Shown here in pieces: positions 1 through 44,200 of a DNA stretch of 64,000 nt (positions within the stretch are counted from its first letter, which is position 1; every line of letters starts with the position of its first letter). The notes under the pieces were generated by a model, which had not been told where the DNA came from, did no database searches, and saw only the letters and a list, made by a program, of their open reading frames with translations. The translations under genes were made by a program, and so were the position numbers. Source of the stretch: Piscicola geometra. Lineage: Eukaryota > Annelida > Clitellata > Hirudinida > Piscicolidae. The DNA lies in the NCBI GenBank assembly GCA_943735955.1, contig OX030959.1, positions 309,001 through 373,000 on the forward strand, written 5' to 3'.

Positions 1-54
1 TGAATTACTCTTGATAGTTCATCGATAGTTCATCACAAAAGCATAACATCTCAC

Positions 55-1056
55 TTCTCTGGATGCACTTTTGGCATTGATCTTAGAACCACTTCTATTG
101 AAAGCCTTGCTTGAGTTCTTCTTAGAACTTCTGACTTTTTCTTCAGACAATCTCAGAGCTCTGATGATCCAAACACTGCTAACCAGGAGAAAAGACAGGG
201 GCAGCAAAACTAGCAGAAAGTTAACCACCACCACTTTGTATCCCACCCTGTAGGCTTGGGGGCGACCAAAGTCGGTTTGGATTTCAATTTTTTGATTTGA
301 GTTTTTAATATTTTTTTGAAGGATAGATGTTGATGAGTCCTGCGAGGTGTTTTCCGTCGTGTCTTGGAAGGTTGCTGTTATGTTGTTGTTGGAAACAACT
401 GCTGGAAAAAGTTTGTTAGAAAGAATCAAATGGTTGCTTAAGAGATTTGAAAGATTCTTGTATTCAATTGTTTCTAGTAATTTAGACTGTTTGTTGGAAA
501 AAGAATCAACTATTTTGTATTCAAAAACTCTAGGACTGTTGAAGACTATTGCCACAACCACCACACAAGCTATGTAGAAGTTCGTGCGACTGAGTGACCA
601 AACTTCGATGGCACGGTGTGGCTTGCAGACGGCCCAGTAGCGGTTGGCTGCCACCAGAACGACCAGCCAGATGCAGATCATGTGGGCCACTGGCGTCAGC
701 AGCCAGACGTACCTTACATACGGCCACGTCGTCCATGGATCGGAACACGCGTGTGTGAAGTGGCAGAAGTAAGGAATGGAGTCGGTGGTGTTGACCGAGA
801 GGAGAAGGATGATGTCGCTGATGGAAAGGCTCTGCAGCAGTCGGATGGCAGCGTTCGCCTTGTCTCGTTGAAGCGCCAAGAAGGAGAGAGTGTTGCCGAT
901 GTAGCCAAGCTGACACAGCAACATCACGATGCAGCCCCACATCACGAAGTCGAAGAAACTGCAGTCGTGAGCTGGAGTGCTTGTTGTTGGGAGCTGAAGG
1001 GGGGTGCACGTTGTGTGTTCAAGTGACGTGCTTGAGAGTGATGTGTTCTTAAACAT
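55..1056 (-). CDS. Rhodopsin-like peptide GPCR (FMRFamide-receptor type), 5' coding exon, partial
   Basis: The exon starts at the ATG at 1056-1054 and encodes 334 residues, ending at a GTGAGA donor (bases 54-49, phase 0). The rest of the gene lies left of the window. Visible parts are an N-glycosylatable N-terminus, TM1 about 36-62 with the GN motif (N55), TM2 with SISD (D81), TM3 ending in NRY (138-140), TM4 about 158-176 ending NSPRVFEY, and TM5 about 271-299. TM6 and TM7 are missing and must be in downstream exons. The CKPHRA segment after TM3 and the SPRVFEY ending of TM4 resemble FMRFamide-receptor-like GPCRs; ligand identity is inference. Two oddities: the usual D/E of the DRY motif is Asn, and the second extracellular loop is about 90 residues, rich in Asn/Ser/Thr, with no cysteine. 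The ORF continues 11 codons past the donor, which is probably intron read-through. Confidence 0.85.
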
Positions 1057-3688
1057 TTCCGTGGAGGAGTTTCGGGGCAGAAGGTTAGAAATGATGAAGA
1101 GGATGATAAGGATGAAGATAAAGTTGCATTTGATGAGGATGATGTAGATAAAGATAAAGTTGATGTCAATCAGTGTTTCTGATTATTCTCGTTACATTGG
1201 CTGTGTTAGCAGGAATTTATTTGCTTTTAGCAATCTGTGATGTAATAGAAGTTTCCAAAAATGTCAAAGACAATCAAGGGATCCGATAACAGCAACAGTG
1301 CTTATAGCTCATTTCATTCAATAAAATCACCTCCACGTTCATTATTTTCCCTTCAACATCACACAATGCAGTCTTCATTCCTGCATCGTCATGACTACGA
1401 CCATCATCACTCCAACCATCAAGCTCAAATCTACCATTATCGTCACTAGAATAATACCGTTAGCAAACGGCTAGAAACATCTGAATAAATGAAAGTGCCG
1501 ATGATGTTTTATATAAATGCCATGTTGGTACAGTGGAGAGGTTTTGCGTGCTTGGATGTTTTTATGTGTTTAAGTGTCTTTTTTTGTGGTGTAACATAAG
1601 TGGTGTTACGTGTGTGTTTTTCGTGCGTGTGCATTTTATTATTTGCATATGTGAGTGTTGTGTACGCAGGTTTGGGCAAGGGTTTAGAACAACTAGAATT
1701 AGTTTTTAGTTCTTTGCGCTGTTGTCCACATGAAAATATCTAGAAGTCTTCGAATTAATATAACTTTATAATACACCAAGTAGACTACAAGTAGGTATTA
1801 GCCGTAATATTTACAAAAGTATTAGTAGTGTACTCATAATTAGTATCAATAATATCGTTTCACTATAAAGATAAAATCCTGCGTTGGTTAAAATCGAATC
1901 AAACTAAAACGGAAAATAGATGTGATGAAATTGAAGATGGTAGTCAGAAGTTTTCAATTCTAGAGATTACTGAGACCGTAAAAATAATGTTCGGTTAATT
2001 TTTATAGATTTAAAATGTATTCAAAATTTTTATCAAAATAAAAAAGTTTTATTTTGTTTTTTTCCTATGTCTTACCTAAATGTATCATAACTTACAATTT
2101 TTATATATGTAATTTTTAACCTTGAAAAAGACAACATACTTCTTATTCTAGCGAATGATAAATTTTGTAAGAAAATGTATCCAGTATTTTAATATATTTC
2201 TCTTTGTTTCAAAAATCAGTTTCATTGAATCTTTTTCAATAATTAAAGCTCAAATGTAATTAAGATCCCCACATAGCCCCATCTAATATATATGCAGTCT
2301 CCTAATGATTATGACTTGGAGGAAAACTGGAAAATATTAAAATTTTTATTCTAATTTCATTTGCAAGTAAATTATAATTTTCTTTATTCGTTTTGGGCAT
2401 CAAAAGGCGTGAAAACAATTATTTTACTGAATACAAAATAGCTAACTCAAAATTTTTATTTTAACACCTGGGAATGCATTACGGTAAACTCACGAGCCTA
2501 GCGAATTGAATGTTTTCATGAATTTCTCAGCGAGACTCATTTAATTAAACTATATAAAAAAGACCAACCTACTACACAGTGTTTTTTTTATATTGTTTTT
2601 TCTCTTTTGTCTGTATAGATATCGCTTGTCAAGTCTGTAAAAGTTTAAACTGATTTAAAACCCTTTAAAAATAATATTGTCTAGTTATTTTCTTTAAACC
2701 TAAAAAAATTAATTGAACACTTTTTTGAATTTTTGATTTTAAAAATATTTTATGTAATTTTCTGTCTCGATCTGAATAAGAAAAAATCAAGAAAAAAATA
2801 ATCTTTGGCTTTCAGCAAGAAAATAGAAAAAAAGTGATTTTGCAAAATATGCATCAGTCAGTAGAAATATTCGTTTCATTTTTCACATGATCTCAACCAC
2901 TAAATATACATCCTTCACTTTAAATGTTTAAGAGTATGCAACTTTTTTATTTTATTTCTCATTCGCATTCGATTCGTAATCGAAAAGTTTAAATTTACTC
3001 GATTTGTCTTTAATCTATAAAAGTTTTTAAAAAATTAATAAGAATAGAGCTCGTGTTAACCCTGGGTTCCCAGAGTCGTTGAATTCATCCTATTCATTTC
3101 TAGGCCTACCAACTGGGGGAATTTGTGGAGTATTTCTGCCCCATGGGGCGTGACTAGACCAATGCCTGACTTAATCTTTTCAGAAACGCCTTCTTTAAGA
3201 TTATCTTGCTATGATCTTAATGTTCAGTAATAAAACACTTGATTGATTGAAAGAAATGTTAAGCTGGGAAAGCGTGGTTTAGGGCTTTGTCCTAACACAC
3301 TATATTCAAACATAGCCATTGACAGAAGAATAAGTGATCATTGTTTTCTGTCTCTTAATAAAGAACAAACCTACCAGTCTAACGACAAGAGCCGTTGAAT
3401 TCGTTCAATTCTAAAACTCTGAGCTTGCACCTTCAAAGCACTGAAAGTATTCTTGGTAGGTTAGGAAGTCTTGAAAATATTTGCATGAAGGGGTTTTCCT
3501 CTGAGTGACCAAAACAAGTTTTATTTTTAAAAAAATAAATAGGAAAGTATTTTAACAATTTACTATTGCCGAGTACCTGATTAAGATATCTAAATTGCTT
3601 ATTTGATCGCATAACTATCGAATTGAGTTCACATTCTCTAATTCGAACTCGAATAATTCAAGAACTGATTATTAACCTAAAAAAAACT
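1057..3688. other. Intergenic stretch between divergent GPCR and mucin genes
   Basis: The two flanking genes are transcribed away from each other, so both promoters should lie here. No clear core promoter was identified. A 62-codon plus-strand ORF from an ATG at 1261 is Ser/His-rich, has no recognisable domain and is not called. The rest is A+T-rich DNA with frequent homopolymer runs, plus one repeat-like block at 3055-3255 listed separately. Confidence 0.5.
3055..3255 (+). mobile_element. Possible retroelement 3' end with TTGA tail
   Basis: This block is richer in G+C than its surroundings and ends in AATAAAACAC followed by TTGATTGATTGA. An A-rich or short tandem tail like this is typical of non-LTR elements. 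A TTGATTGATTGA-type tail also occurs, on the minus strand, near 32195-32235. No coding remnant was recognised, so this is only a suspicion. Confidence 0.25.
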
Positions 3689-16094
<12,406 letters not shown>

Positions 16095-16233
16095 GAAATG
16101 TTTCCAGTCCTACCTTTCTTCAGCACATTTATCTTTTTTTTCTTCTCCATCATCATCATTACGGAAATTTTTATACTTATAAATGGGTAAAACTATAGGA
16201 TAATCCAACTCCAACTTTGGATTATATTCAAAT

Positions 16234-16437
16234 GTGAACTGTCATGCAGTATTGTCTTCCCGAAGTTCTGCCAGGTCAAAAGATGTTGCCCCACAGTGCT
16301 ACAAAATCAACTATGCAAGGGCAAGACGCTTCTTTGTTGCAGTGCCGACACTTTGGAATAGTCTTCCTAATGGACTCAAATCACTGAATTTAAGAACGAC
16401 GTTTAGCGGGTCCTTGAAACCATACTTGTTTGGTTGA
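16234..16437 (+). mobile_element. C-terminal remnant of a non-LTR retrotransposon ORF2
   Basis: The frame ends in an ARARRFFVAVPTLWNSLP segment, then SLNLRTTF and LKPYLF before TGA. This is the familiar tail of reverse-transcriptase polyproteins of jockey/CR1-like LINEs (xWNSLPxxLRxxxxxxxFKxxLKxxLF). Only about 65 residues remain, with no RT catalytic motifs, so it is a dead 5'-truncated fragment. It sits 140 bases downstream of the mucin stop, in the same orientation. Confidence 0.65.
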
Positions 16438-16934
16438 TCTCAATAACTTACGAATTACTATTAACTGCTAATTTCTCCATTTCATTGTCTCGCAAACTAA
16501 ATTATTTATCTTTTTTCTTCATTCAGATTTTCTCTATACATTCATAAATTTTTTTTTCCTTATTTGATCATCAATGTAAATTATTTTTTTCGAATCTCAT
16601 TCAATTGTTTTCTCATGTCCCAAGAATGTGGTGTCTAAGTAGACAATACTCATTGAAAGTATTTAAAATACTTCTACTAAGGCGTTGTTCACAAAATCAG
16701 TGTGACAGTAAATAAGCTATTAAAAATCAGTGCAATAAACTTTCAATCGTTTCTCCTTTCTTTAACAGCGTGCCAAGTTTGACCTTGGCAATATTCTGCC
16801 ACACGCTTAGAAACAACCCAAGAGTTTCAGTCTGATTTAAAGGCACTTTTATGATCTCGCACAAAGAAAATTAAACAAAATATTTCCTATAAAACCGTTT
16901 AAGAGAAAATTCTAGTGCATTATAGATGCCTATG

Positions 16935-17480
16935 ATTTTTTTATTTTTTTTATAGTCTTTATTGATCACGGTTTGACAGACGCAGGCCATGTTACATGTT
17001 GCATAAGATACAAGATAATAGTAGATAATTATAGGATACTGATGCTAATGATAATGGTTTGAAGAAATACTACAAGACAAAGGATATGGTGAATATGGTA
17101 ATAATTAAGTAGATAAATAAATAATAGGAATCAGAGATGATAATATAAATATAAATGTAAATTATAGAATGTGATGTTTAAGAAGACGAGGGAGGAATGT
17201 TTTACTTTCAAGCGTGGTATATATAGGGGTATCAAAATTGTGTTTTCGGGGGTCTTAAGTTATGAGTAGGTTTTTTAAGAGGGGGTAAGATATGGTGAAG
17301 AACGTTGTCAGAGTTAGTAGATATTTGAAAAAATAGTTTAGTGTCTAAAGTGGTAAACATAGAAGTGATAGATGGGCAGAGAGAGGGAAGGTAGTTAAGT
17401 CTTATGAGTTTATTAATTAGGGACTGGAGTTGCTTAATGTGTGGCTGATATTCTTTTTTAATTTTCCTGCTCCTATTAGG
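16935..17480 (-). mobile_element. 3' end of a jockey/CR1-like LINE with poly-A tail
   Basis: On the minus strand the frame reads LNYLPSL, then LHHILPP and HNLRPP, a typical LINE tail. A stop follows at about 17233; a +1 frame change restores a segment ending SFLPR-like (KTFLPRLLKHHIL) before TAA. A 3' UTR then runs to AATAAAG and an A-rich tail near 16935-16955. The frameshift makes it a dead copy. Confidence 0.55.
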
Positions 17481-18060
17481 GTTGCTACAGAGAATTTTTT
17501 TTTCCATACTCTTCTATTTCTATATTTTAGTTTTTGTTTCCATTTTTTTATATCTTCTACCACCCCGTCCTATAAGCTTTTTTGAGGTATTTTTTCTTTT
17601 TCTGGTGGCTCTACTTCAGCATTCCTCTCTCGATCGACTGGTCTCTCTCCTTTGAGCGCGTCAAAACCATCTCAAATGCTTCTTTCTGCCTTTTTCACCA
17701 AAGCGTCTCACCTGCTTTGTCTTGACTAAAATACTCTTTTATAATCTTTTCTGACTTCGTAACTCCCAGCAAAAACCTAGCATCTTTAGATCTACTACCT
17801 CCAGCTCTACTTCTCTTCTTTAGTCACTGCCACTGTCTCTAGAACATACATCATCGCGGGTCACACAACAGTCTTATATATTTTAAAAAACAGTTTCCAC
17901 ACACCTATTTGTAGCAGATCACCACTGTTACTTTTTTCTAAAAACACCGCTCTGTCTGAACTCTTTACTTTTCGGGAGTACTCACCATTGCTTTGATCGG
18001 TGCGCCCAGCTACTTGAAAGCATCCACTTTGTTCAAAGTTTCTTTCTGTAGACACACCAC
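17481..18060 (-). mobile_element. Decayed reverse-transcriptase C-terminal half of a second LINE family
   Basis: Reading down the minus strand with several stops and frame changes are VDAFK-stop-LGAPI (the FKYLG region after the RT palm), then KTVV, a GVTKSEKI segment and a Lys-rich end DGVVEDIKKW. This order matches LINEs whose RT is followed by FKYLG, KTVVRPAMLYG and GVTRxDKI motifs. The polypeptide end abuts the LINE fragment at 16935-17480. Confidence 0.55.
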
Positions 18061-18117
18061 TTCACGGCTTTTTTTCGTTTTTAAACATCTAAGGGTGCTC
18101 ACCAGACGACCAGCAAA

Positions 18118-18237
18118 CTACTCTATTCAGCATTCGTCGACCTTCAGAAAGCCTTCGACGCTGTTCGGAGGAAAGCGATATGGTGGCCATTACGTGAACT
18201 CTGTATCGATAAATGGGTGGTGAAAGTGGTAAAATAA
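18118..18237 (+). mobile_element. Inverted reverse-transcriptase motif-A segment
   Basis: One plus-strand frame reads FVDLQKAFDAVRR, then AIWWPLREL and a WVVKVV ending before TAA. FVDLxKAFDxVxR is RT motif A, including the first catalytic Asp. In an intact element this part precedes the FKYLG region. Here it lies next to that region (18060-17481) but on the opposite strand, giving a head-to-head arrangement. Confidence 0.65.
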
Positions 18238-18517
18238 TATAAATCATTACTATAAAAAATTATTTACTTGATGAATCATTTTAAACTCGTTAAATATTTA
18301 ACATTCACCAGAGTGAAGGTTAAAAGAGGCTTTTTTAACTTTTACTTTGATCGAATAGTTTATTCTCAACAATAGGAATCTAAATTGAAAGTAGAATATC
18401 ATGTATATTGCTGCTTCAATAAAAAAAATATTTAAAAAAAATTAAAATAATTTAATTATAACATTTCATGCGTCCTAAAAAACAAAAAAAGCTCATTAGG
18501 TTAGAAACAAGTGATAT

Positions 18518-18823
18518 TTAAAGATTCTTATCAATATTAGTGTTGAAAAAAGGTTTTCTTATCAATTCTGCAATCACTTGGTTGATGTTTAATCCCACTT
18601 GTTGAGCAAAGAGCAAGACAGACAGCAAGACAACGCGCAAGTGGAGTCTTTTATCGCGACATTTTGATCGCACTGAAGCGTCGTTGAAGAGTGTGTCGTC
18701 GAGACCACCACGCCACCAGTGCTTCAGCCATAACAAGTCAATCACACGATAGATCGGACATTTTAATGCTTTACGTAAACAAAGTGCCAGTCTGCACATC
18801 AAAAATGCGTCGCTGTCATTCAT
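18518..18823 (-). CDS. Hypothetical protein, 101 aa, single open frame
   Basis: The ATG at 18823 opens a frame with more G+C-rich codons than the flanks and stops at 18520-18518. The product has a hydrophobic middle (LRVVLLSVLLFAQQVG), Arg/Lys clusters and two Trp. No family is recognised. It has no obvious signal peptide, and the hydrophobic stretch is short for a membrane helix. It could be a small gene, a terminal exon or another repeat remnant, since it lies just beyond the retroelement cluster. Confidence 0.35.
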   Translation of the reverse strand: MNDSDAFLMCRLALCLRKALKCPIYRVIDLLWLKHWWRGGLDDTLFNDASVRSKCRDKRLHLRVVLLSVLLFAQQVGLNINQVIAELIRKPFFNTNIDKNL

Positions 18824-21422
18824 TTTAAATATCGTTTTTAAAGGAAATTACAATTTTTAGTTTTTAATGAAAAAAACAAAATCTTTCTAACGGGAAAATC
18901 TTTATGTATTTACGTCACTAAAAAAGTTTCTGGAAAAAATTCAGATACAATTTTGGTCTGTTCTTGTTGAGAAAGAGCTTTTGACGATGACAACCCCTCC
19001 TTCCCCCACAACTTTCAAACCCGTCTTGTGTATTTAAAAGCATAACTGTTCACTGAAAATTTGTATCCACCAACGCATAACTCAACTTTTTACATTTTTC
19101 ACGTTAATTAGCAATCGGAAATATTTCATTCTTTTTCTGAGCCAAGTTGTAGCAAGGAGATGTTTATTACAGTTGTGGATTGGTTATGATTCCGCATAGG
19201 CAGGGAAGATGAGATCGGTGTGCAAGCCGTAAGTCAGCCACTTCTCCCGCTCATTTCCAAACATTAGCAACAACAATAAACTCAATAAGTTTTTAGCCTC
19301 GCAATGAAACGAGGCGCAACAGGACTTTTTCCGACTTTCTTCGCTGGATTACCCAACAAACGATAAAGACCACATGTACTAAATTACCCTTATATTTCTC
19401 GACATTGTTTTAATCTAGAAGAGAATGAAGATATCAAAGAAAGAGTGTAGCGTATCATAAAATCAATTTCAAAGCTACTTTCCTGCTCATAAATCATTCA
19501 AGGAGCATAATGGACTGCGTTGTAGAGGCATGCGAGTCATAATGCAGGAATCCTTCTCAATCTGCATTAGTGCTTCCTTTTGTTTTTAATGGTATTTTAG
19601 AAGCCTGTGTGGTCTCCCATTGATGAACGAAGTCTTAGAATCGTAAATTATTCTCTATATTTAGATATATAATATATATTATACATGCCTTGTTCATTAT
19701 GTCTTCTCGAGTATAAGCCGATTAAAAAATAGCGAAATGCTGTATTTATACATTTATTAAATGACACGTTTAGATTTTCTCACTTCATTTGTTGATTCGT
19801 TCATTCAAATAAGTTCAACGGGAATATCAAACTAAAACTCGAGTGATGTCAATTTTTCCAGAATTCATTGACAAAACTTGACTGTTCATTGCTCGAAGAA
19901 TCGCATTATAAAGCTTTCAAACATCCCATAAATCTTAATTATTTTTTTAATCTTTATAAAAATGCAATTTTTAAAAACCGTGTTTTTGAAAACTTAACAT
20001 TTTCCCATAAGCGTAAGGTTGAAATTATGCTTTTTAGGTATTTTTATTCACAGGGCTAAAGTTGCTCTTTGTGGCATCCATCTTTTCTCCAACAATACTA
20101 GGGGGTGTGGGACTCGAAGCCACGACCTGTGACTTTAAGTCACGAGCCGTTAACCACTCAGCCACCTGCTCGTCTAGATATTTTGTTTTTTTATTTTTCA
20201 AAATCTCGTCTTTTCCACTGCATTGAGCATCGTCCATCTATCAAAGCACCTTCAAACATTTATGCTTCTACTGCCATCCATGCTACTAGTTTCCCCGTTT
20301 GCAGACCCCACCTGCTTTCTTCTTCATCAGAGTTCATCTATTACTGTCTAATGCTTTCATTACCAAGTAAAAAGATATTACAGACCTAATAGAGGATGTG
20401 CACAAAAGACTTTTCTGCCCTCCTTCGACACTATCATATCATCCCCTCTTCAGCATTACAAAGATTTGGTAAATTTGTTTTATGAACCGGTTTTCACGAG
20501 AATTTATCGGCTTTGGGTGTTCAAGGTCTCGTTGGGTTCCGACTCCCCGCTATCAACTCTGTGCGATCTTACCAGCGATTTAAAGCTACCACGTCTGAGC
20601 TCCAGAATCGACTGCGAAGCGTTTTTTATTTCTTCATAATTCAGATAGAAACACAGAATATTATTTTTCAATAGGCCGTAAAACTAGTGTGGTATTTTTG
20701 GTAAAACCGCAAGCGAAAGGTTATTCAAAATAATTTCATTCAACAACAAAATCTACCGTATTCCGTACAATTGACTCTGTTTGCTGAAATGAATAATAAT
20801 ATTTTTTATTCGTGTCTTTTGAAATTTTTCTCTTTTTTGATGTCCCACACGAGAATTTTTTATTGTTTGGGTCAAAAAGTTGTTTTAACAATTTTCAAGC
20901 TACAAAATGAAATAAAAACCCCTAAAAAAATAATTTATAAATTTAAGCTTTTAGAATTTTTTTACATCAAATAATATAAATAATAGTTTTTTAAAGTAAA
21001 TTATCAATAAATTTAGATAAAATTAAAAAATCATAAAAAGATTAATAATAACAACATTAGCAAATAAAGAATTCTTCAACCAAAACAAACAATAGCATTT
21101 AAAACGGACTGGTTAATCAACGCGCTTGGTATATAACTCAAAAGCGTTGTTCTAAACGCTGAAAATGTGTCTTAATTTGTCTTTCAAAAAGTTTGTCACC
21201 TAAGACTTCAGCTATACACAAAATAAAATATACTTGTTTTTATATCTTTGAACGTTCAATTTATTATTTAATTTAATGTTTAAACTGTAATTTAAAACAT
21301 TGAATAAATAAATAAATAAAAATTAAATTGAGCAAGGCTTATCTGAAAAACAGAAAAACAAATTTTTTATCGACGTTTGAAAAAGGGTTTCTACATTTAA
21401 ATAATTGGAAATAAAGGTGATA
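18824..21422. other. Non-coding stretch upstream of the GM2-activator-like gene
   Basis: No supported gene was found. A GTAAGT donor near 19230 with an upstream TTTATTACAG acceptor frames a segment with stops in every frame; it could at most be a 5' UTR exon. A tRNA-like SINE occupies 20040-20180. The 150 bases before the ATG at 21423 are A+T-rich, with ATAAATAAATAAATAAAAATT near 21304. Confidence 0.5.
20040..20180 (-). mobile_element. tRNA-derived SINE
   Basis: On the minus strand, TGGCTGAGTGGTTAACGG matches the Pol III A box and GGCTTCGAGTCCC matches the B box, 45-50 bases apart. The segment between can fold as a Leu-TAA-like anticodon arm. The acceptor stem does not pair and the T stem has a C-C mismatch next to the loop. 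A non-tRNA body ending in A-rich sequence follows, so it is a SINE head, not a working tRNA. Confidence 0.55.
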
Positions 21423-24400
21423 ATGATGGAAATGTTGAAACTGCTTCTTTTATCGATCGTTGTCTCATCAGCCCTAGAGCAGGAGAGTTCTCCTCTACGA
21501 GAGTCCGAGCCGAAGCACAACGACCAGGTAGCAAAGCAAGTTGCTGACCCAAAACGATCTGAAAAGAATTTAAAACAAGAAGGCAATGTGACGGAAGAAG
21601 GAGAAGAAAGAGACGGGTTGGTGAGGGGTGGTGGCATGAAAGATGGCAGTCTCCATGCACTCGATCAATCTAATCGATCCATCAATCAATCCTCCAATCG
21701 CTTCAGCCAGCTCATCCATCAGCCGTTCCAAAGGGAGAAGAGACATGGAAGAAAAGTTAAAGTTGTTTCAAGAAAAAAGGTCTTTAGAATACTAAACGTT
21801 TTGAGGCTGTACAGAATGCAAAAAAGACTAAAACGACGCCGACAAGAAAAGCTGCATCGACAAAACACTCACTTAAAAAACCAAAACAACCGCTATCTTC
21901 GTCTTAAGAACAAACCACTTCGCCAGCATCGCCATCAGCGCCAAGAACGCACGCACAAATCTGGATGGATTCAGAAGCATTTGAAGCAATTAAAGACAGA
22001 AACCTCGAAAGCACGAAAAGGAAACTTTAACAGAAAAAAGAATCAAAAGAAGGTTGAGAAGAGTTTAGACGGGAGTTTGGAGGACTTGGATAGGAGGTGG
22101 TGGAAGGCCAGAAGAGAACTGGAACAAGCGAGAAGCAATGCTGTAAAGAAAAAAGATAAACGTCAAAGGCAAAACACCGTTTACAAAAAATACGAAGGTT
22201 CAAGAAACGGTTTAAAAGTTTTCCGAAGCAGAGGCATCAAACTTTACGGTTTGGATGGAAAGAAAGGCAGTAGGAAAATTCGACATGGAAAGAATGGAGT
22301 GGATGCAACAAGGGTCGAAGTGGTGAGTGTTGGAAGGAAGCGGAAGGAAGGAAGAAGGATCGGTGGAGAAATGAAGTCAGGATTCAAACAATGCGGTGGA
22401 AAAGGTTTGTGAGCGAGTCCTCGAAAGTGTGGTTGAATGTGTAGCCAATGATGTGCTGATTTAGTGGCGCAATAAAGACAGGAAGCAATGCACACTTCAT
22501 GGAAAGTAATGCTGCTGACGCTCGTTAATTGCACAACGTTCAGATGAATCTTTAGTAATCGCTCATTAAAGTAATTTCAATACCTACACAATTTATTTTT
22601 CATTTTTAATAAAATAATTATAAACAAATGTTACTGAAAATTGAACATAAAATAGATTTGTGTCGATAAACAGAGCAATATTTCAACAAATATTAAAAGA
22701 GAACTCACTGGAAGCAATGAATCAAAACTCTAAATCAAAATCGGTGTTAGCGCCATAAGCCGTTGACACTAACTTCACCCCACCAGTCTTTCACGAAAGA
22801 AGTTGATTGAAATGTATATTGAATAGAAGAAGAAATATTGACCAAAGGAATTTGGAAGATTAAGAGTTTAAAATATTTTTAGAGTTTTATTGCAAAAATC
22901 CAAAATAAATTCCATTTTTTCTTGAATAAATAACGCAACTTGTTAAGATAATGTATAAAAGTCATAAATCCGTGTTTAATGCATTGGACAAACACAATGA
23001 CGCTTTTTACTGAATTGTGACTTTTTCAGACAAAATTTCTAGGATTTTTGCTCTTTAATATTTTTTTTCACTTTCATAATTCATGTTTTTAACTTAAGAA
23101 AATTGCTTCACGAGCAATTAAACGAAAACTTTGGCAGAAACTCAAAGATTTAAGATAGGAGCTTTTTTAAACGTAAAAACGAACATGAGTAAATTATAAA
23201 AAATTAAATCGTTAAGCAAATTTACAAACTTAAATATAGAAAATATAAAATAAAACGTTCGAAACGTGTTCTAGCGCTATAGACCTTGTGTCTCACAGAG
23301 GCTTGCATTGAGGCACGAAGGCCATTGAGTGATGGTTCATGCTGTTTTGGTCCTTGGGGAATGCCAAGCCTGCGGATATCTCAACTTCAGGGCAGTATTT
23401 TTGATGGAGCATGAAAGGTTAAGCGGGGCAGACGAGATAAGAAGCATCACTACTCAAGCCGACCACCCAGAAGCAATGGATTGATGGATGGGCACACACA
23501 CGCTGAGGCTGCTATTAGTCGACTATGCTTTCAGACTCGCTCTCAAATTTATGATCTTTAAGTTATGCGCAGGTTTGTATTGCTCGTCAGTGAATAAGAA
23601 CACGTTTCCGAGAATTTAGCTGTCGACAGACGAAACTTAATTCAATTTCCATTATTATTATTTCTATTTTTTCAAAAAAACCAACACACCCTCACACTTA
23701 ATTGCTATTCTACCAGACTCTAGGCGTGACACTCTGGTTAAAGTGATTGACTTCAGTCTCCACCCACCCCTGCACCACCGCTCCTACCACCCTTCGGCAC
23801 AGCCTCTCCGACTCTCTTTCGCTATCAACATCACTCAAGACTTGCCCTTCTCCATAGGAGTTGAACTAGCACTCTTCAGAACCACTCTTTCTGGCATCAG
23901 AGTTCAGGTTCCCTGCTACTCCATCTTTGGAAGCTGGTAAGGAGGGAGGAAGGTGGGTGAGTTTGGTTTGGTAATAAAAGTGGCCAGATAACTTTGAAAA
24001 TAATATTTATTTAAATATTGTCAGTTCTGTATTCTCATAGATTCATAAAAAAAGTTATCCAAAAATTTATGGTGAAATTTCACGCGTGGAAAAAATTCAA
24101 ATCGATCTTAGTTTTTCACAAAAGCTTATCCAAAAATGAGTGTACGTCAAACATATTTACAAACATTATTTTATTTAGATTATTTCAGAACATTGTTTTT
24201 CTCAAAACATTTTAATTCGGGGCTCCATGCAGAGTAATCGGAAACCTTTCTAAATAATACACTGATATGCCATCTCATTGAGAATCGTAATAATTAAACT
24301 AATAGTTTTATTCAAATATATTTTTAATTAAGGTAATTACATTTAATTACACGTATTACAATACAATGGCACATATGGAAGGCTTGGGAGGTCTGGTTGG

Positions 24401-27400
24401 GTGGTCGCCGTTGATTAGGCTCCAGTCGTGAAAGAAGTGGTGTTGTTTTTGTGCTGTTGTGCTTTAAGCTGTGTTGTTTTTGGAATGGGTGTGTTTAAGA
24501 AATAGCATTTCTTTTTAAACTTAATCAGTTAGTTTTTAAGATTCTGCATGGTCGAATAGAAATAGTCAATAACTCATTGTCACGGCTTAGGCCATTTCTG
24601 TGGTATTTGTAGAACCCTAGGCATTTAACAAACTTTGTTCGAATTGAGTTTACTTTTAAAGGCGCTTTAAGACCCATTATATCTTCGTTCAGCACAATGA
24701 TCGTTCCATTTGTTGCGACCAGCTGCTAGTCGCAACTGTGTTGAATGAACCACCCTCATGAATAATCTAATTCATTTAATTTTAAAACTTTATTTTTAAT
24801 GAATTTTGGTCAATTTTTACAAACTTCATGGAAATCCACTTTTCTGATCTATACCTTCGTGATGATTTAGTGCTGAAGCAGGGTTTACAGATAGCCGCAG
24901 TTTGATTTGCGTGTGGCCTGCTACTCTAACACCCATCACAAATGAATTATTGCTAACAATTAAGATAAACCATTTTTAACAATAGAAGCTCTTACAAAAT
25001 TAAAAGTTGAAGAAAAGTAGAATTAATTAATAAATATTTTCTTCCTTTTACAATTTTAAGTTGATTAAGATTTTTCATATTCATTTTATATAATTGAAAA
25101 GTTTTAATTTAACAAAATTATACGAACTATTCAGCCAGACTAATTTTTTACTTGAAATTCCCGAGCAGTCCGACAATTCTCCCATTGACTCTCTTCATGA
25201 GAGGATAATACTCGACTAATATATTTCGAAGGCTATTTGACACTTTTAGCGTCCACATACCAATCCAGAGTCAATTGTTTGACTCATCAATAAGTAATCT
25301 CTTAAGTATCTAGTAAATGTGCTTTGAAATTCTTGTTTATGAATAACGAAATAATTATAAAAAGTACAAATGTTTCAGAGTATAAATTCGATTTTGTTCC
25401 GAAAACACAAAAGTTGAAAAAACAGAAGCATAGTTTTGAAAAATGTGTACTTAGTTTCTAAAAATCTGAAAATTATTTATAAATGTAAAAGAAGTCATTT
25501 GTAAAAGTTTAGTCAACAAACCGATCAATAATGTAATTTCATTAATTTTAAATTTGAAAAATATTTGAGAAAACCAGAATTTTTTAAATAAAAAGGTTTC
25601 TTAAAATAAAATTTGTCTGGTTTTTTGTTAAAATAAATAAAATGTAAACTTGGATACATAGGTTTAAAATCAAGTGCGACTGTCCTTGTGAAGCACGCAA
25701 TAAAACATAAGAATGCTCTAAAATGTTGATTTCACATTTTCCACAAGTGAATTTTATAAAATTCACTGAAATTACTGAAAACTGGTTTTAATTAATGCAT
25801 TTTTTCGGCCCTTTTTTTTCTTTGTTCACACGTGTGAACCGCAGCATGTAGCACATTATAACTTATAAGCATGTCAAAAATACCCAAATTGGTGTTTCTT
25901 TCAATCAAAAGAAACTTTTAATTCACTTTATTTTTTTTAATAAATACTTAAATTTATATTTTTTCGTCTACAGTTACTTTGAAAACGTTTGTGCCTTCCT
26001 GGAAAGTTTATGGAGCTCAGGCATGAACCACTACAGTCATTCTTCTAGCTATCCTTCCAGCCACTTATCTTACCAAACACCCAGTAATCAAACCACTGAC
26101 GCAAAAAGTTTGTTTCAAAATGAATCTTCGAGAAATGAAACATCAAGTAAAAAATCGTACGACACAAAAACAAACTTCTTCAACCAACCATCGTTTTCTT
26201 CATTAGTGCCACTACCACCATCAGCAACGCCATCGTCTTATGATTTACACCCGCTCCAAACAACTCAACTGGCTCACATATCATTGCAAGAGCCTCGTAA
26301 AAAACCAGATTCTTTTTTTTCTCCTCCTCCCATCCCCTCTTCTTTCGATCTTTTTCGTTTGCTTTCTTCAGCATTACCTGCTCCATCTTTTCTTTCAGCA
26401 CCACCGTTGTCATCTTCAACTATTTCTTCTCAAGCAAAGACATTAATCACAACTGAAGTATTTCCAGCAGCTTCGCCACTCTCAGTTTCATCTTCTTCAT
26501 CCCCATCACCACCAGCACGCTGTCCACGCCTGTTACGGAGACAAGGCATTCCCTGCAAATGCCCTTTCAAACAAGGTCTCTACCAGCTGCACCACTACCC
26601 CATCCACCCTCCTCCCTTCCAACACTTCTTTCCTTTTCTCATCAAGGTCAATGAGGGTGCTAGCAAATAAATAAAATTTAATTGGAATTTTTAAATAAAA
26701 TATTAAAGAGCCCATTCATTGATTTTATCTTTATTTAGTTTTTATGTTTAAGGTTTTAAAATAAAAAATCTATTTAAAATAGTTTAAAATTGAAGTTTTT
26801 ATACATTTTCAACTTTTTCAATTAGCAGTTTTAACCTCTTTTAAGCTGACGAATGTATCTTGGTTTTAAGTTTTCGGTTGAAAAATAAAGCAGGTTCCAT
26901 GATTTAAAGGTTGACATTCGTATTCACAGACAACTCCTTCAAATAAAGACCTCGCATCCACAACATTGTGTGCTGGAGTGGCATACCTTGAAGGAAAAAA
27001 AATCTTTTTAAAGTTTATTTTACTCAAAGTACTTAATTCTTTAAAATATTTATGATAAGTTGAGAAAAATTTTGAAGGAATAAATGTTTCAGAAATAATA
27101 CAAGGCAATTAGCTTTTATGGCGTTAAATTTTACTTTAACAACGCTTCTTAACTGACTCCCAACATCTTTTAAATGATCTTATTGTTTATTCATGCTAGT
27201 TAATGCAACTAAGTAAGAAGAAAAAAATAGGAAAAAATTTACGGAAACAATGAGATAGTAAGTGAATTCGAAGAAACACTCAGAGATTTTCTTCATTTTT
27301 TCAAGATTTTGAGATTCATGTAAATTAAAGAGAAGACCTTTCTAAAAGATAAATTAATTTAAAGCTCAGAAACCTCATCAAAATGCTGTTGGCATGTTTA

Positions 27401-27817
27401 ATTGACTTACCGTGTAATGGATAGTTTCCGGGAACCAATTTACCGTAAATGCAAGTCTTTTCTTCCACGTGACTATCATCAGAACGACATTTCCTGATTA
27501 TATATTAGTGATGTTGCTTCAGATATTTATAAAACCTTTTATTAAAAAAATTATTATTATTATTATTATAAACTTTTTTAGTAAACCAACGGTTAGTTGT
27601 TGTTAAAAAAGAACATCACTTTCCATTTGACCACCACCATATCAAACCACTTTATCAATTCCCCATATCAAACCACATTATCTTACCACCCTTATTCTTC
27701 ACAACGCAGGGTCTTTACGAAGTGCAGCTCAAACTGGTGAGCAGAGAGAGGCAGCCTCTCGCATGTCTCAGGGTGCCCTTCTCCTTCAAGCACAGACGCA
27801 CCAACAGATTCTATTGA
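21423..27817 (+). CDS. GM2-activator-like secreted protein with basic N-terminal extension (4 exons)
   Basis: Model: exons 21423-22408, 23724-23936, 25974-26646 and 27710-27817, 659 residues. GM2 activator lifts glycolipids from membranes for lysosomal hexosaminidase. Residues 1-20 are a signal peptide (MLKLLLLSIVVSSA). An acidic pro-like stretch ends at the furin-type site REKR (104-107), then a Lys/Arg/Gln-rich region runs to about 315. The lipid-binding domain begins near C324 and has eight cysteines: C324, C393, C400, C406, C583, C594, C596, C643. Spacings C393-C400-C406 and C583-C594-C596 equal those of human GM2A (99-106-112, 125-136-138). Motifs include VPCYSIFGSC, YFENVC, GIPCKCPFKQG and GLYEVQL. 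Cys400 is made across the exon 2/3 junction. A Ser/Pro/Thr-rich insertion fills C406-C583. The exon 1/2 junction is ambiguous: a donor at 22405 with an acceptor giving exon start 23717 also keeps frame (660 aa). The exon 3 donor GTCAAT is weak. Confidence 0.8.
24712..24736. repeat. Perfect 8-bp inverted repeat in GM2-activator intron 2
   Basis: GTTGCGAC and its reverse complement GTCGCAAC flank a 9-base loop containing CAGCTG. It could form a hairpin but has no T-run that would suggest a regulatory RNA. Confidence 0.5.
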
Positions 27818-33736: not shown

Positions 33737-35592
33737 GAGGACAGAATTAAGCAAGAGTTACGATCTCCGTGCTTGCAATGTCGTGTTTGGTGTAGTGTTT
33801 GATGAGATGAAACCAGAGTTGCTTATGATAGTTGTATTGGTAGTTGTGATGGGAGATTTCTATTTTTAAATGTAAGTAACTGGGTAATAAGTTGAGAACG
33901 CGTGTATTTTATACTTGCGATAAGTTGGAATTGAAATAATGTATTGAAGATTTTCGAAATATCGTCAGCAATAAAATGATTTCATGAATGACATTAGCTT
34001 TAACATTTATTTCTAAAATACATATTCATGAAGAGTGTAGATTTAATGAGTTTTTTGGTATTCAGAGAATTTTAAAAACAGAAAAAAGTGAAAAAATAAA
34101 AAAGTGAATGAATAAATGAATAATTAATGAACAGCATGCAAAAGTATTAGAACGGTGAGAGGAGAATGGGGTATTTATGAGGGACGAATGAAACGAGGCT
34201 TTTAAAGGAAAATTAAGCAAAATGGATTGATGATAGTGACGACTCGAGCGAGAAATGAAAGAAACAACTTTATGAATATAAGGAGACAATGAAACAAGAA
34301 ACGAATGTACTATAAGCCGAAAAGAGCTGTTTGAGGTCTAAACAGTTGAAAGCTTTGTGGATGAGTGAGTGAATAAATAGATAAATTTATTGGTGGGTGA
34401 ATGACTAAATGAGATTTCAGATAGATAATAGAATTAGTTGATACTCAAAAATGTATGGCTGAATAATAAAAGAAAGAATTATAGATAGGAAAAAGATGGC
34501 AATAAAAGATTCATGATAAAAAAGATGGATTATTATGGCTCGTACAACGCAATAAGATTATTCGGCTTCGCAATTACGCATCATGTCTTGTAGAAAAAGC
34601 ATCACCACCACTCCTTCCACCGTCATCACTACTATTCCTACAAACCAACTTTTTTTAAATTGCAAATACGAGCATTTGACTCATTTTAAGTCTTCAAACT
34701 ACTTTAATTGTGCTCAACAAAAAATTCAATTTACACAAAAAAAAACATAATATTTTGAACTATTTTTTAGCATGACTTAATCATGATGTTATTTAAAATA
34801 CAATTTCAGAATCATATTTTTCCAAAAGTACGTTTTTAAGTTGTGAATGATTCTTTTTGGATGGATGTCTGTCAGCACAAACGTTGATAATTGTTTGAGA
34901 ATCATCCATAAAAAAACTATCATTCCTGCTTGATTAATTATTTATTTTAATTTTTTTTAAATCTTAAACTCATTATAATTTCAAAAAATTTTTTTTTTAG
35001 TAAAACGTTGCTTTTGTGATCAGCGGCATGCTGCTATGGAATGTCTGTCGAGCGTGCTGTCTCTGTTGGCTTCACTATATTGCTGGATAAGTCCCTGGAA
35101 ACTCGCAGTGCAAGCAATGGTTAATGTGAAACCTTAATAAGATTTATTCACATGTTAAATTCTATTTTCACTGGATTTTTTCGATTTGTATTGCGTGTTA
35201 CTCGAGTAAAGAATAACTTTTACAATTATCAAGCGTGAATAGTTCATCTTATTTAGTTTTCAAAATATTCAAAATTGATGAAGATGTAGATAATATGAAA
35301 AGCTGAAATTTAAAAAATATTTGTTTAAGGGAGAAAAGAGATGGAACGTGAAGGAAGACGGACAGGAGAGGAAACAACATCATGGGTCTTAATTAATATA
35401 CGTAAACATAACTGAATGCTATTTATTTTTAAAGTCTTTAAAACTATCATCATAATTCTAAAAAGCACGGAGTTAAAAAAAATATTTGCGCTGAAATAGA
35501 GTGAAAAATAAATTGAGTAGAAAAGAAGATTACTTAAAACAAAAGGAAGATTGATTCATTTTATTTATTCAACCAAAAACTACACAACTGAC
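33737..35592. other. Non-coding A+T-rich stretch
   Basis: Nothing coding is supported. Around 34090-34400 there are scattered GAATGAATAAAT-type short repeats. The minus-strand frame at 34062-34289 is low-complexity. Confidence 0.5.
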
Positions 35593-35938
35593 CTCTTTTA
35601 TTGGCACGGTAGTCGTTTTTGATACGGGTTGGCTGCTTGGGAGGTCTGGGAGTCTTGAGGAGAGTGATGTTTGCACTGGAGGAGCCCATGTGGTTGCTTG
35701 CACTGATCATATACACCCCATAGAAGGCCTCTTTAACTTTCGAAATGTTCAAACTGCATATGAATCTTGATTCTGGAATCTGAGGGCTGTTTTGGTTGTT
35801 GTTTTGGTCTTTGTGATGGTCGGCAGTTGTGAGGTAGTTGTATGATAAGTGGTCGTAGTGGCTGTGGCGATTGTGTTGGTTGTGAACTTGGTTGAAAGAC
35901 TGATGCTGTTTTTGTCGGGATTGAACTTTTCGTTTGAT
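35593..35938 (-). CDS. Ig-like domain half, candidate exon
   Basis: The exon follows a strong minus-strand acceptor (TTTTCTTCCCCACAG) and ends at GTCAGT. It is 346 bases long, entering in phase 0 and leaving in phase 1. After a His/Gln/Asn-rich low-complexity stretch it reads FICSLNISKV, then FYGVYMISASNHMGSSSANI. This matches the E-F-G strands of an I-set immunoglobulin domain (LxIxxVxxxDxGxYxCxAxNxxG), with Ile where the F-strand Cys should be. It lies downstream of the stop exon of the two-Ig gene, so it is either an alternative 3' part of that gene or a second gene. Confidence 0.5.
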
Positions 35939-36964
35939 CTGTGGGGAAGAAAACAGTTTTGTTATTTTAAAAAACGAATTAAGATCTACATTTTGAAGCC
36001 TTTTTAAAGCTATGAGACACTTTACAAAACTTTCCAATTAAAATCTATTTGAAGGGTTAACATGGACTCCAATAATCCAAACCATAGCAAGCAGAAAAGC
36101 AAGGATCTTTTGGCTTTAAGCTCAGTCTGAGTTTGTCTTATCACTTAAACTAACACTATATGTGTTTTCATATTGGTCTTTTTATTGTTTTATAAAGATA
36201 ATTATAATATTTAATACAGAAATTAAGTATTTAGACAAAGGATGAAATAGATTTTTTGTGTGAATTTCATCAAAGCTTCTACTAAATGAACTTTTTTTAA
36301 ACTTTTTTTTCGTTAAACAATGAAAACTACTTTTTAATATCTATATGCAGCTCAAGTATATTCTGAGCTCGTGTGAATGTTAACTAAAAAGAGTTGACAT
36401 AGTCTTTTATATAGATAACTTGAAAATTTAGAGATAAAAAATACAACGCTGAGTAAATTGACTTATCAACGAAACCGTACAAAAGACTCAAAATAAATAG
36501 AATAAAATAAACGTACCAGATATACATTAAATAATGAATAAATTTTAAAATAATAAGTTAGAGTTAAAAAGGAAAAGAAAAAAGTGTAGACACTTAGAGT
36601 TACATAAAAAGAACATTTGCGAGCTCACAACACGAAGATTTCTGCACGCAAAGTGGAGTTTCATACACTCAAGACACCTTCCTTTGCGACCAGTTTGATT
36701 GCAAACAAACACATTCACGCGTTATTCTTTTTGGTGAATTTTTTTTCATTCAATTTATTTTATCATTTAGACTCTTGATTATTGCAATTTTATTCCCACT
36801 CACAAGTCACTCTTTTCGGTATTTAAAGTTATTCTTTAGATAATTTAGGCGTCCCAGCTCGATGTTATTATAAAAAAACTTGCAAAAGGATCAATAAATC
36901 TTGAAAAAAGTCACCATTGAGCTTTGCAATAAATGCTCATTTCAGGCAACACTGGCACACTCAC

Positions 36965-41200: not shown

Positions 41201-44200
41201 AAAGTTTCACCAAGATATGGACTCTGTGGTGGGAAAGGCTGGTGTTGAGAAGATGGTCGTTGACGCTGATATTGAGTGCAGGAGAAATGCTTGAAGAAAC
41301 CGCCCATGCTGTGCAACTGGATGGATGGGGGTTAGAAAAGGTTGTGGTGGTGAATTGGGTGGGCAGCTAGGAAAGGTTGTGGTGATGAATTGGGTGGGCA
41401 GTTAGGAAAGGTTGTGGTGGTGAATTGGGTGGGCAGTTAGGAAAGGTTGTGGTGGTGAATTGGGTGGGCAGTTAGGAAAGGTTGTAGTGGTGAATTGGGT
41501 GGGCAGTTAGGAAAGGTTGTAGTGGTGAATTGGGTGGGCAGTTAGGAAAGGTTGTGGTGGTGAATTGGGTGGGTTAGGGTGAGTTTTAGTGGTCCAATCA
41601 GGTGAGTTAGAGGTGGGTTAGGGAGGGTTTTAGAGTGGCGGACTATCACTAAGGGTTTTATGTGGTGATAAAAACGAGAAGAGTACATTCGATTTAATAT
41701 TCATTGTAAAAAAAGTAAATAGGATTTTAAAAATTTAGTTTTATAATTTTAATAATTAATGGAGAAATCTTATTAGAATGGCTGTTTGTGATGCCGCCTG
41801 CAAAGCAAAGAGGAGAAGATAAGGGAACTAATTATAGATTATTGGAGTTATAAGAAGGATCGTAGTAATTGGAAAAGAAAAAAAAGGCGTGTTAGAATTG
41901 ATCAATGAGTTTGCAATCAAGGGGTCGAAGAAACTAGTAGAAGGACAGATGTGGATAAATTAATGGTGGTAGAGATTGATTAGACTTTAAGAAAAGTTGT
42001 GTTTGCTGAGTAATTAATGGAAATTGAAAGATTACAGAAATCAGACTTCGATTAAATTATCAGAATGTGGAAAAAAATAAAAACTGGAAAAGTGAAGAAA
42101 CTAAAAGAATTAATGTTGAAAGTGATAAAAACGATGCATTAGACTCGAAAAAACCCGCAGTGTTTGAGTGCGGTTTAAAAACTTGAGTATAAAAATTGGA
42201 AAAAATAATAAGAAAACTTGAGTATATAGAATGTGTGGAATGACAAACTTGTTGAATATTGGAATTTGACAAAGATTACATGGAAAAGAATGGCTGCAAC
42301 TAGCGATTGCATAAAATATTGCGAACAATGAAAATGGGTGATCAAATTGTGAATTTGAATTTATGAGATGCGCGAGAAATAACGACGCAAGCCACCATTG
42401 TCTCAAAGGTTAACTGAGGAAGATGGTTGAATTATGTAAATGATATTGAACCTGGCAGAGGAAAAGCAACAAGAATAATTAAATGTAAAGTGTGTGTGAG
42501 GGTTTGATGACATGCAAACTATGTTATATTTTCAATGGTTCTTGAATCACGGAGTAACTCAGAGTAGAAAAACTTGGAAATTGTGAAAAGATTGAAGATC
42601 GTTTAAACTTTGAAAAATAAATAAAACTATGTAGTTTCAAAACTATGCTTTTGAATTATCAATGGCGTTGTAATCTCCAAGCAACTTTCAAAATTGAAAC
42701 CATTTTTCTAAAACAAATAAATACAATTTCTGAGACCTATTTATTGATATTGAAAATTTTCGAAACTATAAATCGTTGTCGTATTTTTTCAAAAACCAAC
42801 CTAAGATTGTGATTTTCTCCTTCCTTCAACACTAACATCTCTCCAGGAGTTAAGAGCTTGTCTTGGTAGGCCAGTGACATGCCACTGAGAGGCACTGATG
42901 GGAGCAGACGGGATGCATTGGTGGCTGAGTGTGTGTGAAATGGCTCTGAGCATAAATCAATTGGAACGTTTAAGAGATGAATTTATTTATTGGAAGGTAA
43001 ATTGATGGTTTAAAGATGGCAAATATAAGGCAGGTGAAAAGATAGATGTTAGGCAGGAGAATAGATAGATATGTTAGCGAATGATAAATGGTCGGGTGAT
43101 AAGCGAGTCATCAATTTGTAAATACTTATATAAAAAAAGGTTTAAAAAGGCACAAAAACAGTTCAAATGTATTTTTTTAAAAACATTAAAAGACATGGAA
43201 AAATAAAAAAAACATTAGATGGAGCTTGAAGGATCTGCATAGTGCTTGGGGATCGGTTCATAATTTATTTCTTAGCTGAAATGTTTCATTTATTGATTCA
43301 TTTCATTAAAACAAGAAATTCTGTTTTTAAAAAAAATTTTAAGTTTTATTTTCATTTTTTTGCAGCGGCGATTGTGTTTGAAAGTTCTAAGTTCAATGAC
43401 GTTTGAGATCTTTAGAAACTCGATACGTTTTCAGGCTTAGTACAAACACAAATAGAGCTAGAAACTGTAAAAAAAACTTTTTGTTTGTCTTAATAAATTG
43501 CAATCTAGAAAATTTTGAATAAGATGTATTGGAATTCTTGATTCTAAAAAAAGTTAATCTTTGTTCTTTTGGGAGATTTCATATTTTTTATCCTCACAAG
43601 TAAGGAAAATTATATTATTTAAAAAATCCATCGATACCCTAAGATTCAAGTGAAAACTCTCTCAAATAACTTAAAATTGTTAAAAACATAAAAAACAGTT
43701 TTTATTAATAATATATTTCAAACTATCCATTATGTTGTCAACATGTATAAGAATCTTTTCAACTGCTCGTTATTCTCAGTGAGCCCTCATTGAATAACTC
43801 TTGCTACTTATTAAATCAATCTTTTCTGCTACTACGCTTCCTTTGATGCTACATTTATTTTCTTTCTGGCAGATTTCTCATCTTCCCGCACTATTTTACA
43901 ATACAATCTTCACTTCAGATAATTTTTCAAATTTGAATTTGAAGCAATTTAAACTTCTTTTAAATATTCCATTATGAAATGAAATATACGAATGAAACAA
44001 GAAACTTGAAACAATGCCATTTTCATAAACTAGCTTCATTGCTGATGAAAATTTTATCAGCCACTTGAATTTTTAATGTTTCAACGACTTCCAGCTTTGA
44101 TGCTCTTGAATAAATCTTTGTTTTAAAAGTTATGTGAAAGTTAAGAAAAGCAGAATATCAATTATTTCAAGTTCTATAATTTGATAATATGTAATAAATT

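What the first reader, a model, noticed from the sequence alone, without database searches (positions are those of the whole stretch)
21423..27817. GM2-activator domain fused behind a furin-site pro-region and a large basic domain
Sequence: four exons join in frame. The C-terminal half has all eight GM2-activator cysteines, with the two local spacings (7 and 6; 11 and 2) equal to human GM2A. Upstream in the same secreted polypeptide are an acidic stretch, REKR, and about 200 Lys/Arg/Gln-rich residues. Known: GM2A is a small single-domain lysosomal lipid-transfer protein. Inference: the basic part could target polyanions or membranes, making this a modular extracellular lipid-binding protein.
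Basis: partly seen in the sequence, partly recalled or inferred. Interest (0 to 1): 0.82.

Follow-up and report, generated by a model that had tools for sequence, protein, structure and literature searches.

The report
Enlarged GM2-activator protein in fish leech
A fish leech carries a gene for the lipid-carrying GM2-activator protein that appears to be enlarged about three-fold by a long, positively charged front part and by a serine- and proline-rich insert inside the lipid-binding domain; whether and how this large protein is made and used is still untested.

Summary
The gene is real. Assembly statistics identify the source as the fish leech Piscicola geometra, chromosome 5. Exons 2-4 encode a GM2-activator (GM2A) domain: phmmer finds mammalian GM2A structures at E 6e-11, and the four local cysteine spacings match vertebrates. 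Genome searches found no second copy. Exon 1 is a long open frame: signal-like start, neutral pro-region ending in REKR, then 216 residues with 73 K/R and 17 D/E.

An insert of about 164 residues, 48% Ser/Thr/Pro and not repetitive, lies inside the domain between Cys4 and Cys5. The exon 1-2 junction has two in-frame solutions (22404/23717 and 22408/23724).

Weak point: joining exon 1 to exon 2 rests on gene structure and one cysteine. Homology across the junction was no better than chance, stronger donors lie inside exon 1, and a stop plus AATAAA follows it.

Best reading: an enlarged, convertase-processed, secreted GM2A relative. Its basic part is a polyanion tether or a removable pro-segment. 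A new variant of a known kind; expression and function are unknown.

The parts
21423..22404 (+).
   Evidence: Open in 0 of 2000 own-composition simulations; period 3; both ends give an in-frame join with 8 Cys
21423..21476 (+). Signal-peptide-like start, residues 1-18
   Evidence: Ten-residue hydropathy maximum 2.72 near the start; no signal-peptide program was run
21477..21743 (+). Pro-region, residues 19-107, ending in REKR (104-107 = 21732-21743)
   Evidence: pI 6.4; R-X-[KR]-R motifs at 104 and 135 only
21744..22391 (+). Basic region, residues 108-323
   Evidence: 73 K+R, 17 D+E in 216; no family match
22392..22394 (+). Codon of the only cysteine of exon 1, proposed Cys1 of the GM2A domain
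   Evidence: Residue 324; MAFFT aligns it with the first GM2A cysteine
22405..23716 (+). Intron 1 (22409-23723 in the other model)
   Evidence: AAG|gtttgt ... ctaccag|ACTC, or TTT|gtgagc ... actctag|GCGT
23717..23936 (+). Exon 2: first strands of the GM2A domain, Cys2 and the first two bases of the Cys3 codon
25974..26646 (+). Exon 3: Cys3 (last base of the codon) to Cys7, with the insert
26023..26514 (+). Ser/Pro/Thr-rich insert of about 164 residues between Cys4 and Cys5
   Evidence: 48% S+T+P; period 3 above 500 of 500 simulations; 8-mer redundancy 0.012, like shuffled 0.009; three N-glycosylation sequons
27710..27817 (+). Exon 4: end of the GM2A domain with Cys8, and the stop codon

Best explanation
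This is the fish leech's GM2-activator (GM2A) gene in an enlarged form. Shown here: exons 2-4 encode a GM2A domain; exon 1 is a long coding-like frame that can be spliced to it in frame; the domain is interrupted by a Ser/Pro/Thr-rich insert between Cys4 and Cys5. Inferred: the precursor enters the secretory pathway and a furin-like convertase cuts after REKR-107. The basic region either stays as a tether to polyanions (acidic lipids, sulfated or sialylated glycans) or is trimmed further at its many dibasic sites, releasing a carrier closer to normal GM2A size. The cup of the GM2A domain holds and moves a lipid, and the insert forms a flexible, perhaps glycosylated loop after the domain's helix. 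Human GM2A also has a short pro-peptide (recalled), so an inflated precursor segment is at least as likely as a fused functional domain.
For: GM2A-only hits among solved structures at E<=1; 64.0 bits against a profile of 109 GM2As, 81.9 with the insert cut; 26 columns invariant with 18 other GM2As, including all 8 Cys. Exon 2's open frame holds no ATG, so it needs an upstream exon. Exon 1 is the only ATG-plus-hydrophobic frame from 17000 to 23700 with a phase-2 GTAA/GTGA/GTAG donor and the most hydrophobic start in a relaxed scan. Two in-frame junctions keep 8 Cys. No second GM2A found.
Against: Alignment across the junction is not better than chance (55 of 200, 179 of 500 shuffles), and hmmsearch gave no score at all for the junction piece against an N-terminal sub-profile. 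The Cys1 motif of exon 1 ranks 37th of 84 candidate sites. The profile alignment starts only at residue 366, so Cys1 and the start of exon 2 lie outside it. Exon-1 donors are mediocre (4.0 and 4.3; rank 46 of 465 for the first), while stronger donors lie inside exon 1, two of them in phase with exon 2 but skipping Cys1. Unspliced, exon 1 stops at 22412 with AATAAA 59 bases on. No RNA evidence; no relative with the same architecture was found. Tethering is inference only.
Confidence: 0.55

Rival explanations
1. Two genes: exon 1 is an intronless gene for a secreted basic protein of 330 aa ending ...KQCGGKGL-stop, and the GM2A gene (exons 2-4) takes its start from another small exon not recognised here.
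For: The exon-1 frame ends at TGA 22410-22412, and an AATAAA lies 59 bases further. Homology across the junction is not shown. Six other ATG starts with a hydrophobic stretch and a late Cys exist from 16100 to 23650, e.g. 20262 and 22488.
Against: Nine AATAAA/ATTAAA lie in the 1304 bases of the gap, so one within 59 bases is unremarkable. The other candidate first exons are less hydrophobic (at most 2.19 against 2.72). Exon 1 has a single cysteine in 328 codons, placed 3 or 4 residues before its end, which makes the count 8.
Confidence: 0.17
2. Alternative splicing: donors inside exon 1 (intron starting at 21617 or 22097, in phase with acceptor 23723) make shorter precursors, with little or none of the basic region and without Cys1, beside or instead of the long form.
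For: CGG|GTTGGT (5.2) and GAG|GTGGTG (5.9) score above the 22408 donor (4.0) and are in phase 2.
Against: These forms lack Cys1, which the GM2A fold pairs with Cys8 (recalled). The strongest internal donors (10.4, 8.4) are in phase 0, for which neither acceptor of exon 2 fits. The matrix is generic and recalled.
Confidence: 0.1
3. The Ser/Pro-rich insert is wholly or partly an intron that happens to be open.
For: In-frame GT-AG pairs exist inside exon 3 (for example 26084-26515, 26147-26398). Open repeat-filled intron sequence occurs in this genome, e.g. the PF00728 locus L015. The insert would stay open in this frame in 27 of 2000 own-composition simulations.
Against: Internal donors are weak (best 2.9, against 4.0 to 10.5 at the model's donors). 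Codon periodicity is 49.7 against at most 35.5 in 500 simulations, though intron 3 also shows some (6 of 500 reach it). Not repetitive. Even removing 26084-26515 would leave Cys4-Cys5 at 33, not 13.
Confidence: 0.12

Closest known systems
Human GM2 activator, GM2A (PDB 1g13, 1pu5; P0001, 193 aa)
   Same: Eight cysteines with local spacings 7, 6, 11, 2; segments around PC..x.GSC.xE..C and G.PC.CPFK.G.Y.L; best hit among solved structures
   Different: The leech precursor is 659-660 aa, with a basic pro-part of about 300 aa and an insert of 164 aa at Cys4-Cys5; the conserved W of the AGxW lip segment is R
Nematode secreted GM2APs, e.g. Onchocerca volvulus OvGM2AP, 259 aa (PMC6675134, passages seen)
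   Same: GM2A relative of a parasitic invertebrate with a signal peptide; OvGM2AP is found in secretions and the paper reports that it does not support GM2 breakdown
   Different: Smaller; the passages give 10 cysteines, 6 shared with human; no basic pro-part is mentioned in them. No sequence comparison was made here
Salmon louse GM2 activator-like protein in secretions (PMC5948691, one passage seen)
   Same: ML-domain protein secreted by another ectoparasite of fish
   Different: Architecture not given in the passage; not compared by sequence
Other ML-domain genes of the same genome (L005, L006, L007)
   Same: Pfam family PF02221, each over its cut-off
   Different: The leech GM2A query does not reach them, and PF02221 does not reach this gene exon by exon. 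L007 reads like NPC2 (motif recalled); L005 and L006 were not examined further

Membership tests
GM2 activator (GM2A) | Significant sequence similarity to GM2A | tested here: met
   1g13 E 6.1e-11 in two stretches; profile of 109 GM2As 64.0 bits
GM2 activator (GM2A) | Eight cysteines with the family's local spacings | tested here: met
   7, 6, 11, 2 as in 107 of 109; met only if exon 1 supplies Cys1; exons 2-4 alone give seven
GM2 activator (GM2A) | Pfam ML domain (PF02221) over its curated cut-off | tested here: inconclusive
   Full protein 18.2 bits, below 22.7; insert-less domain 26.7, above it; not found exon by exon
GM2 activator (GM2A) | Small single-domain protein of about 190-200 aa | tested here: not met
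   659-660 aa as modelled
GM2 activator (GM2A) | Beta-cup fold with four disulfides | not tested
GM2 activator (GM2A) | Lipid extraction and hexosaminidase cofactor activity | not testable with these tools
   Needs protein; PF00728 matches are present in the genome
NPC2 / other ML proteins | Closer to NPC2 than to GM2A | tested here: not met
   Only GM2A among solved structures at E<=1; the three other ML loci are not reached by this query
Cationic antimicrobial peptide precursor (works-like comparison) | Amphipathic cationic helix after the cleavage site | tested here: not met
   Highest hydrophobic moment in residues 111-323 is reached by 164 of 300 shuffles

The most novel reading that the evidence does not exclude
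A secreted, host-facing GM2A in which a polybasic helical stalk, exposed by convertase cleavage, anchors the lipid cup to polyanionic surfaces such as fish mucus or membranes, while a mucin-like loop inserted beside the cup gates or shields lipid exchange: an extracellular lipid extractor built from a lysosomal cofactor.
Probability: 0.1. Interest if true: 0.65.

Novelty: new variant of a known kind. Interest (0 to 1): 0.36.

Why it matters
If RNA confirms the model, the only GM2A gene found in this genome has grown about three-fold while keeping its eight cysteines. That would show how much the lipid-cup domain tolerates (a 164-residue insert between two cysteines) and give a testable case of a parasitic animal altering a lipid-transfer protein that is lysosomal in mammals. 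If RNA separates exon 1, the gene is a GM2A with an unusual insert and the 'fusion' disappears.

Tried and rejected
Genome-wide protein inflation: PF00728 pieces far apart in one open frame suggested that conserved domains are commonly stretched here. Reading two of the three loci (L015, L016) showed low-complexity sequence in frame with an exon. At L015 it follows a good exon end (CAG|GTGGCT) and is repetitive (8-mer redundancy 0.526 against 0.012 in the GM2A insert). Rejected for L015, likely for L016; L017 was only listed, and nothing was tested genome-wide.

Antimicrobial-type amphipathic helix: not supported. AlphaFold2 of exon 1 without an alignment drew one helix, 117-257 (mean pLDDT 65.4, pTM 0.27); used only as a hint.

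Relatives: with the leech sequence, none at E<=0.001 among 5528 and 70 candidates. That search needs shared five-residue words and did not return human GM2A either, so it only says that no close relative was caught. With human GM2A in the query, 237 of 571 candidates pass and 120 were listed, the named ones vertebrates as far as I can tell; 117 were not seen. Viral contigs: 46 pattern matches, no relative.

Papers: 'GM2 activator' with 'annelid' 0; with 'leech' 4; with 'nematode' 19 and with 'invertebrate' 31, of which 18 and 20 were listed; 'GM2A' with 'furin' 8; 'Piscicola', 'transcriptom', 'saliva' 8. By titles and abstract starts, none describes a leech GM2A or a GM2A with a basic pro-part. 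Searches returned only PMC6675134.

The 18S search did not complete; the species was settled by assembly statistics.

Rows dropped and limits: searches used 109 of 120 listed GM2As (170-205 aa). In one search, 2 of 109 did not fit the pattern, and 12 of the other 107 show a first spacing of 80-89, probably because an upstream Cys was caught. One search asked for phase-2 GTAA/GTGA/GTAG donors and hydropathy of at least 2.0; one search relaxed this but asked for a late Cys. The donor matrix holds recalled generic values, not fitted to this genome. One search ended in an error and was replaced.

Full report
Source. The genome held for the window has 171,024,195 bases in 66 contigs, and the window is contig 5, 309001-373000. 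Contig 66 is a 15,135-base mitochondrial genome. Ten protein genes named by Pfam or by position lie on one strand in the order ND6-CYTB-ATP6-ND5-ND4L-ND4 ... ND3-ND2-COX1-COX2, the annelid order as I recall it. [quoted passage not shown] part 1 of 3 of the text read) gives 171.1 Mb, a mitochondrion of 15.1 kb, chromosomes 4 and 5 of 12.34 and 10.69 Mb, N50 9,301,023 and N90 6,573,335. Contigs 4, 5, 7 and 16 here are 12,335,861, 10,690,977, 9,301,023 and 6,573,335 bases. I take the window to be P. geometra chromosome 5.

The gene. The four exons join in frame with GT-AG introns. A second in-frame solution exists for the first junction: donor AAG|gtttgt after 22404 with acceptor ctaccag|ACTC before 23717, giving ...FKQCGGKDSRRDTLVK... 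instead of ...FKQCGGKGLRDTLVK.... It has a CAG acceptor like the other two introns, a slightly better donor under a generic recalled matrix (4.3 against 4.0) and a slightly better alignment with GM2A (-8.7 against -11.9). I prefer it mildly; both keep the same eight cysteines.

GM2A identity. The full protein hits only GM2A among solved structures at E<=1, in two stretches (365-416 and 582-651 for 1g13). With most of the intervening insert cut, one continuous alignment remains (E 6.7e-13; the only other hit up to E 10 is an unrelated kinase at E 1). A profile of 109 GM2As gives 64.0 bits for the full protein and 81.9 with the insert cut; the alignment begins at residue 366. Aligned with 18 other GM2As, 26 columns are invariant, including all eight cysteines. 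Cys1-Cys2 is 69 or 70 against 59-60 in 95 of 107; Cys4-Cys5 is 177 against 13 in 107 of 107; Cys7-Cys8 is 47 against 45 in 104 of 107. Pfam's ML model scores the full protein below its cut-off (18.2 bits) and the insert-less domain above it (26.7). Searches of the genome with the leech domain and with human GM2A found only this gene (4 matches, all in its exons; 1 match at E 0.019). PF02221 found three other ML loci and did not find this gene.

The insert. About 164 residues, 26% Ser, 14% Pro, 8% Thr, with three N-glycosylation sequons, lie between Cys4 and Cys5. They show strong codon periodicity (49.7 against at most 35.5 in 500 simulations; introns 1, 2 and 3 are reached by 25, 487 and 6 of 500). 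They are not repetitive and hold only weak internal donors. Openness alone is weak proof: 27 of 2000 simulations of the same composition are open in this frame. The insert follows the part aligned with human FEHFCDVLDML, which is helical in the solved structure as I recall.

Exon 1. The frame is not a chance opening: 0 of 2000 own-composition simulations are open, and the longest frame in 200 simulated 10-kb stretches is 228 codons. It begins with a hydrophobic core, has a pro-region of pI 6.4 ending in REKR, and a basic region with 73 K/R and 17 D/E in 216 residues. That excess of K/R over D/E is not what mere purine-rich drift would give (inference). R-X-[KR]-R occurs at 104 and 135, and dibasic pairs run through the basic region. 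No family match and no paralogue in the genome. A no-alignment AlphaFold2 model draws one helix, 117-257, with mean pLDDT 65.4 and pTM 0.27; such models often overcall helices in charged sequence.

Is exon 1 part of the GM2A protein? For: exon 2's frame holds no ATG; exon 1 is the best signal-like candidate upstream; it ends in two in-frame donors; its only cysteine sits where GM2A needs its first. Against: alignment across the junction is no better than with shuffled tails (55 of 200; 179 of 500), or than with other exon-1 pieces (13 of 135 and 72 of 269 reach it). hmmsearch gave no score for the junction piece. The Cys1 motif ranks 37th of 84. The 22408 donor ranks 46th of 465 GTs nearby, and stronger donors lie inside exon 1, two of them in phase with exon 2. 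The unspliced frame stops at 22412, with AATAAA 59 bases on, one of nine such signals in 1304 bases. I put the joined gene at about 0.8.

How it most likely works. In mammals the GM2A protein lifts GM2 from membranes for hexosaminidase A and also binds other lipids such as PAF (PMC4393008, passages). Passages on O. volvulus and T. pseudospiralis describe GM2APs that do not support GM2 breakdown, the former secreted (PMC6675134); a GM2A-like protein is reported in salmon louse secretions (PMC5948691, one passage). Nine PF00728 (hexosaminidase-family) matches at three places exist in this genome. I infer a secreted or lysosomal lipid carrier with an enlarged precursor cut at REKR; the basic part is a polyanion tether or a removable pro-segment, and I cannot say which. 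Lipid, tissue and partner are unknown.

Verdict. New variant of a known kind; interest 0.36.

Noticed in passing
window 4659-16094 (+): Single open frame of 3811 codons, 78% Thr and 8% Glu, built of 12/36/90-base units that are 68-71% alike with 8-10% indels; no ATG in its first 374 codons. Looks like a giant mucin-like Thr-rich protein or an open repeat array.
   Followed up: partly
window 3581-4057 (+): Open frame of 158 aa with a repetitive basic stretch (VRVPRIVRVQRL...), a Cys-rich piece and a hydrophobic stretch; only a weak Pfam match (IMCp, E 0.49).
   Followed up: no
window 19-1182 (-): GPCR-like frame: 7tm_1 E 1.3e-05 (below cut-off), Srx 24.5 bits (just over its cut-off of 23.8).
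   Followed up: no
window 62938-63594 (-): C-terminal piece of a TBC1D23 homologue, E 8.6e-09.
   Followed up: no
window 35561-36037 (-): Possible Ig I-set fragment, 17.7 bits, below the cut-off.
   Followed up: no
window 20099-20170 (-): tRNA-Leu (TAA) about 1.2 kb upstream of exon 1.
   Followed up: no
window 41331-41573: 35-base tandem repeat, 6.9 copies, 96% alike.
   Followed up: no
L015 and L016 (contigs 7 and 5): Hexosaminidase-family exons run into long open low-complexity sequence in the same frame; at L015 this is a repetitive intron after CAG|GTGGCT. Such open introns could mislead gene prediction in this genome.
   Followed up: partly
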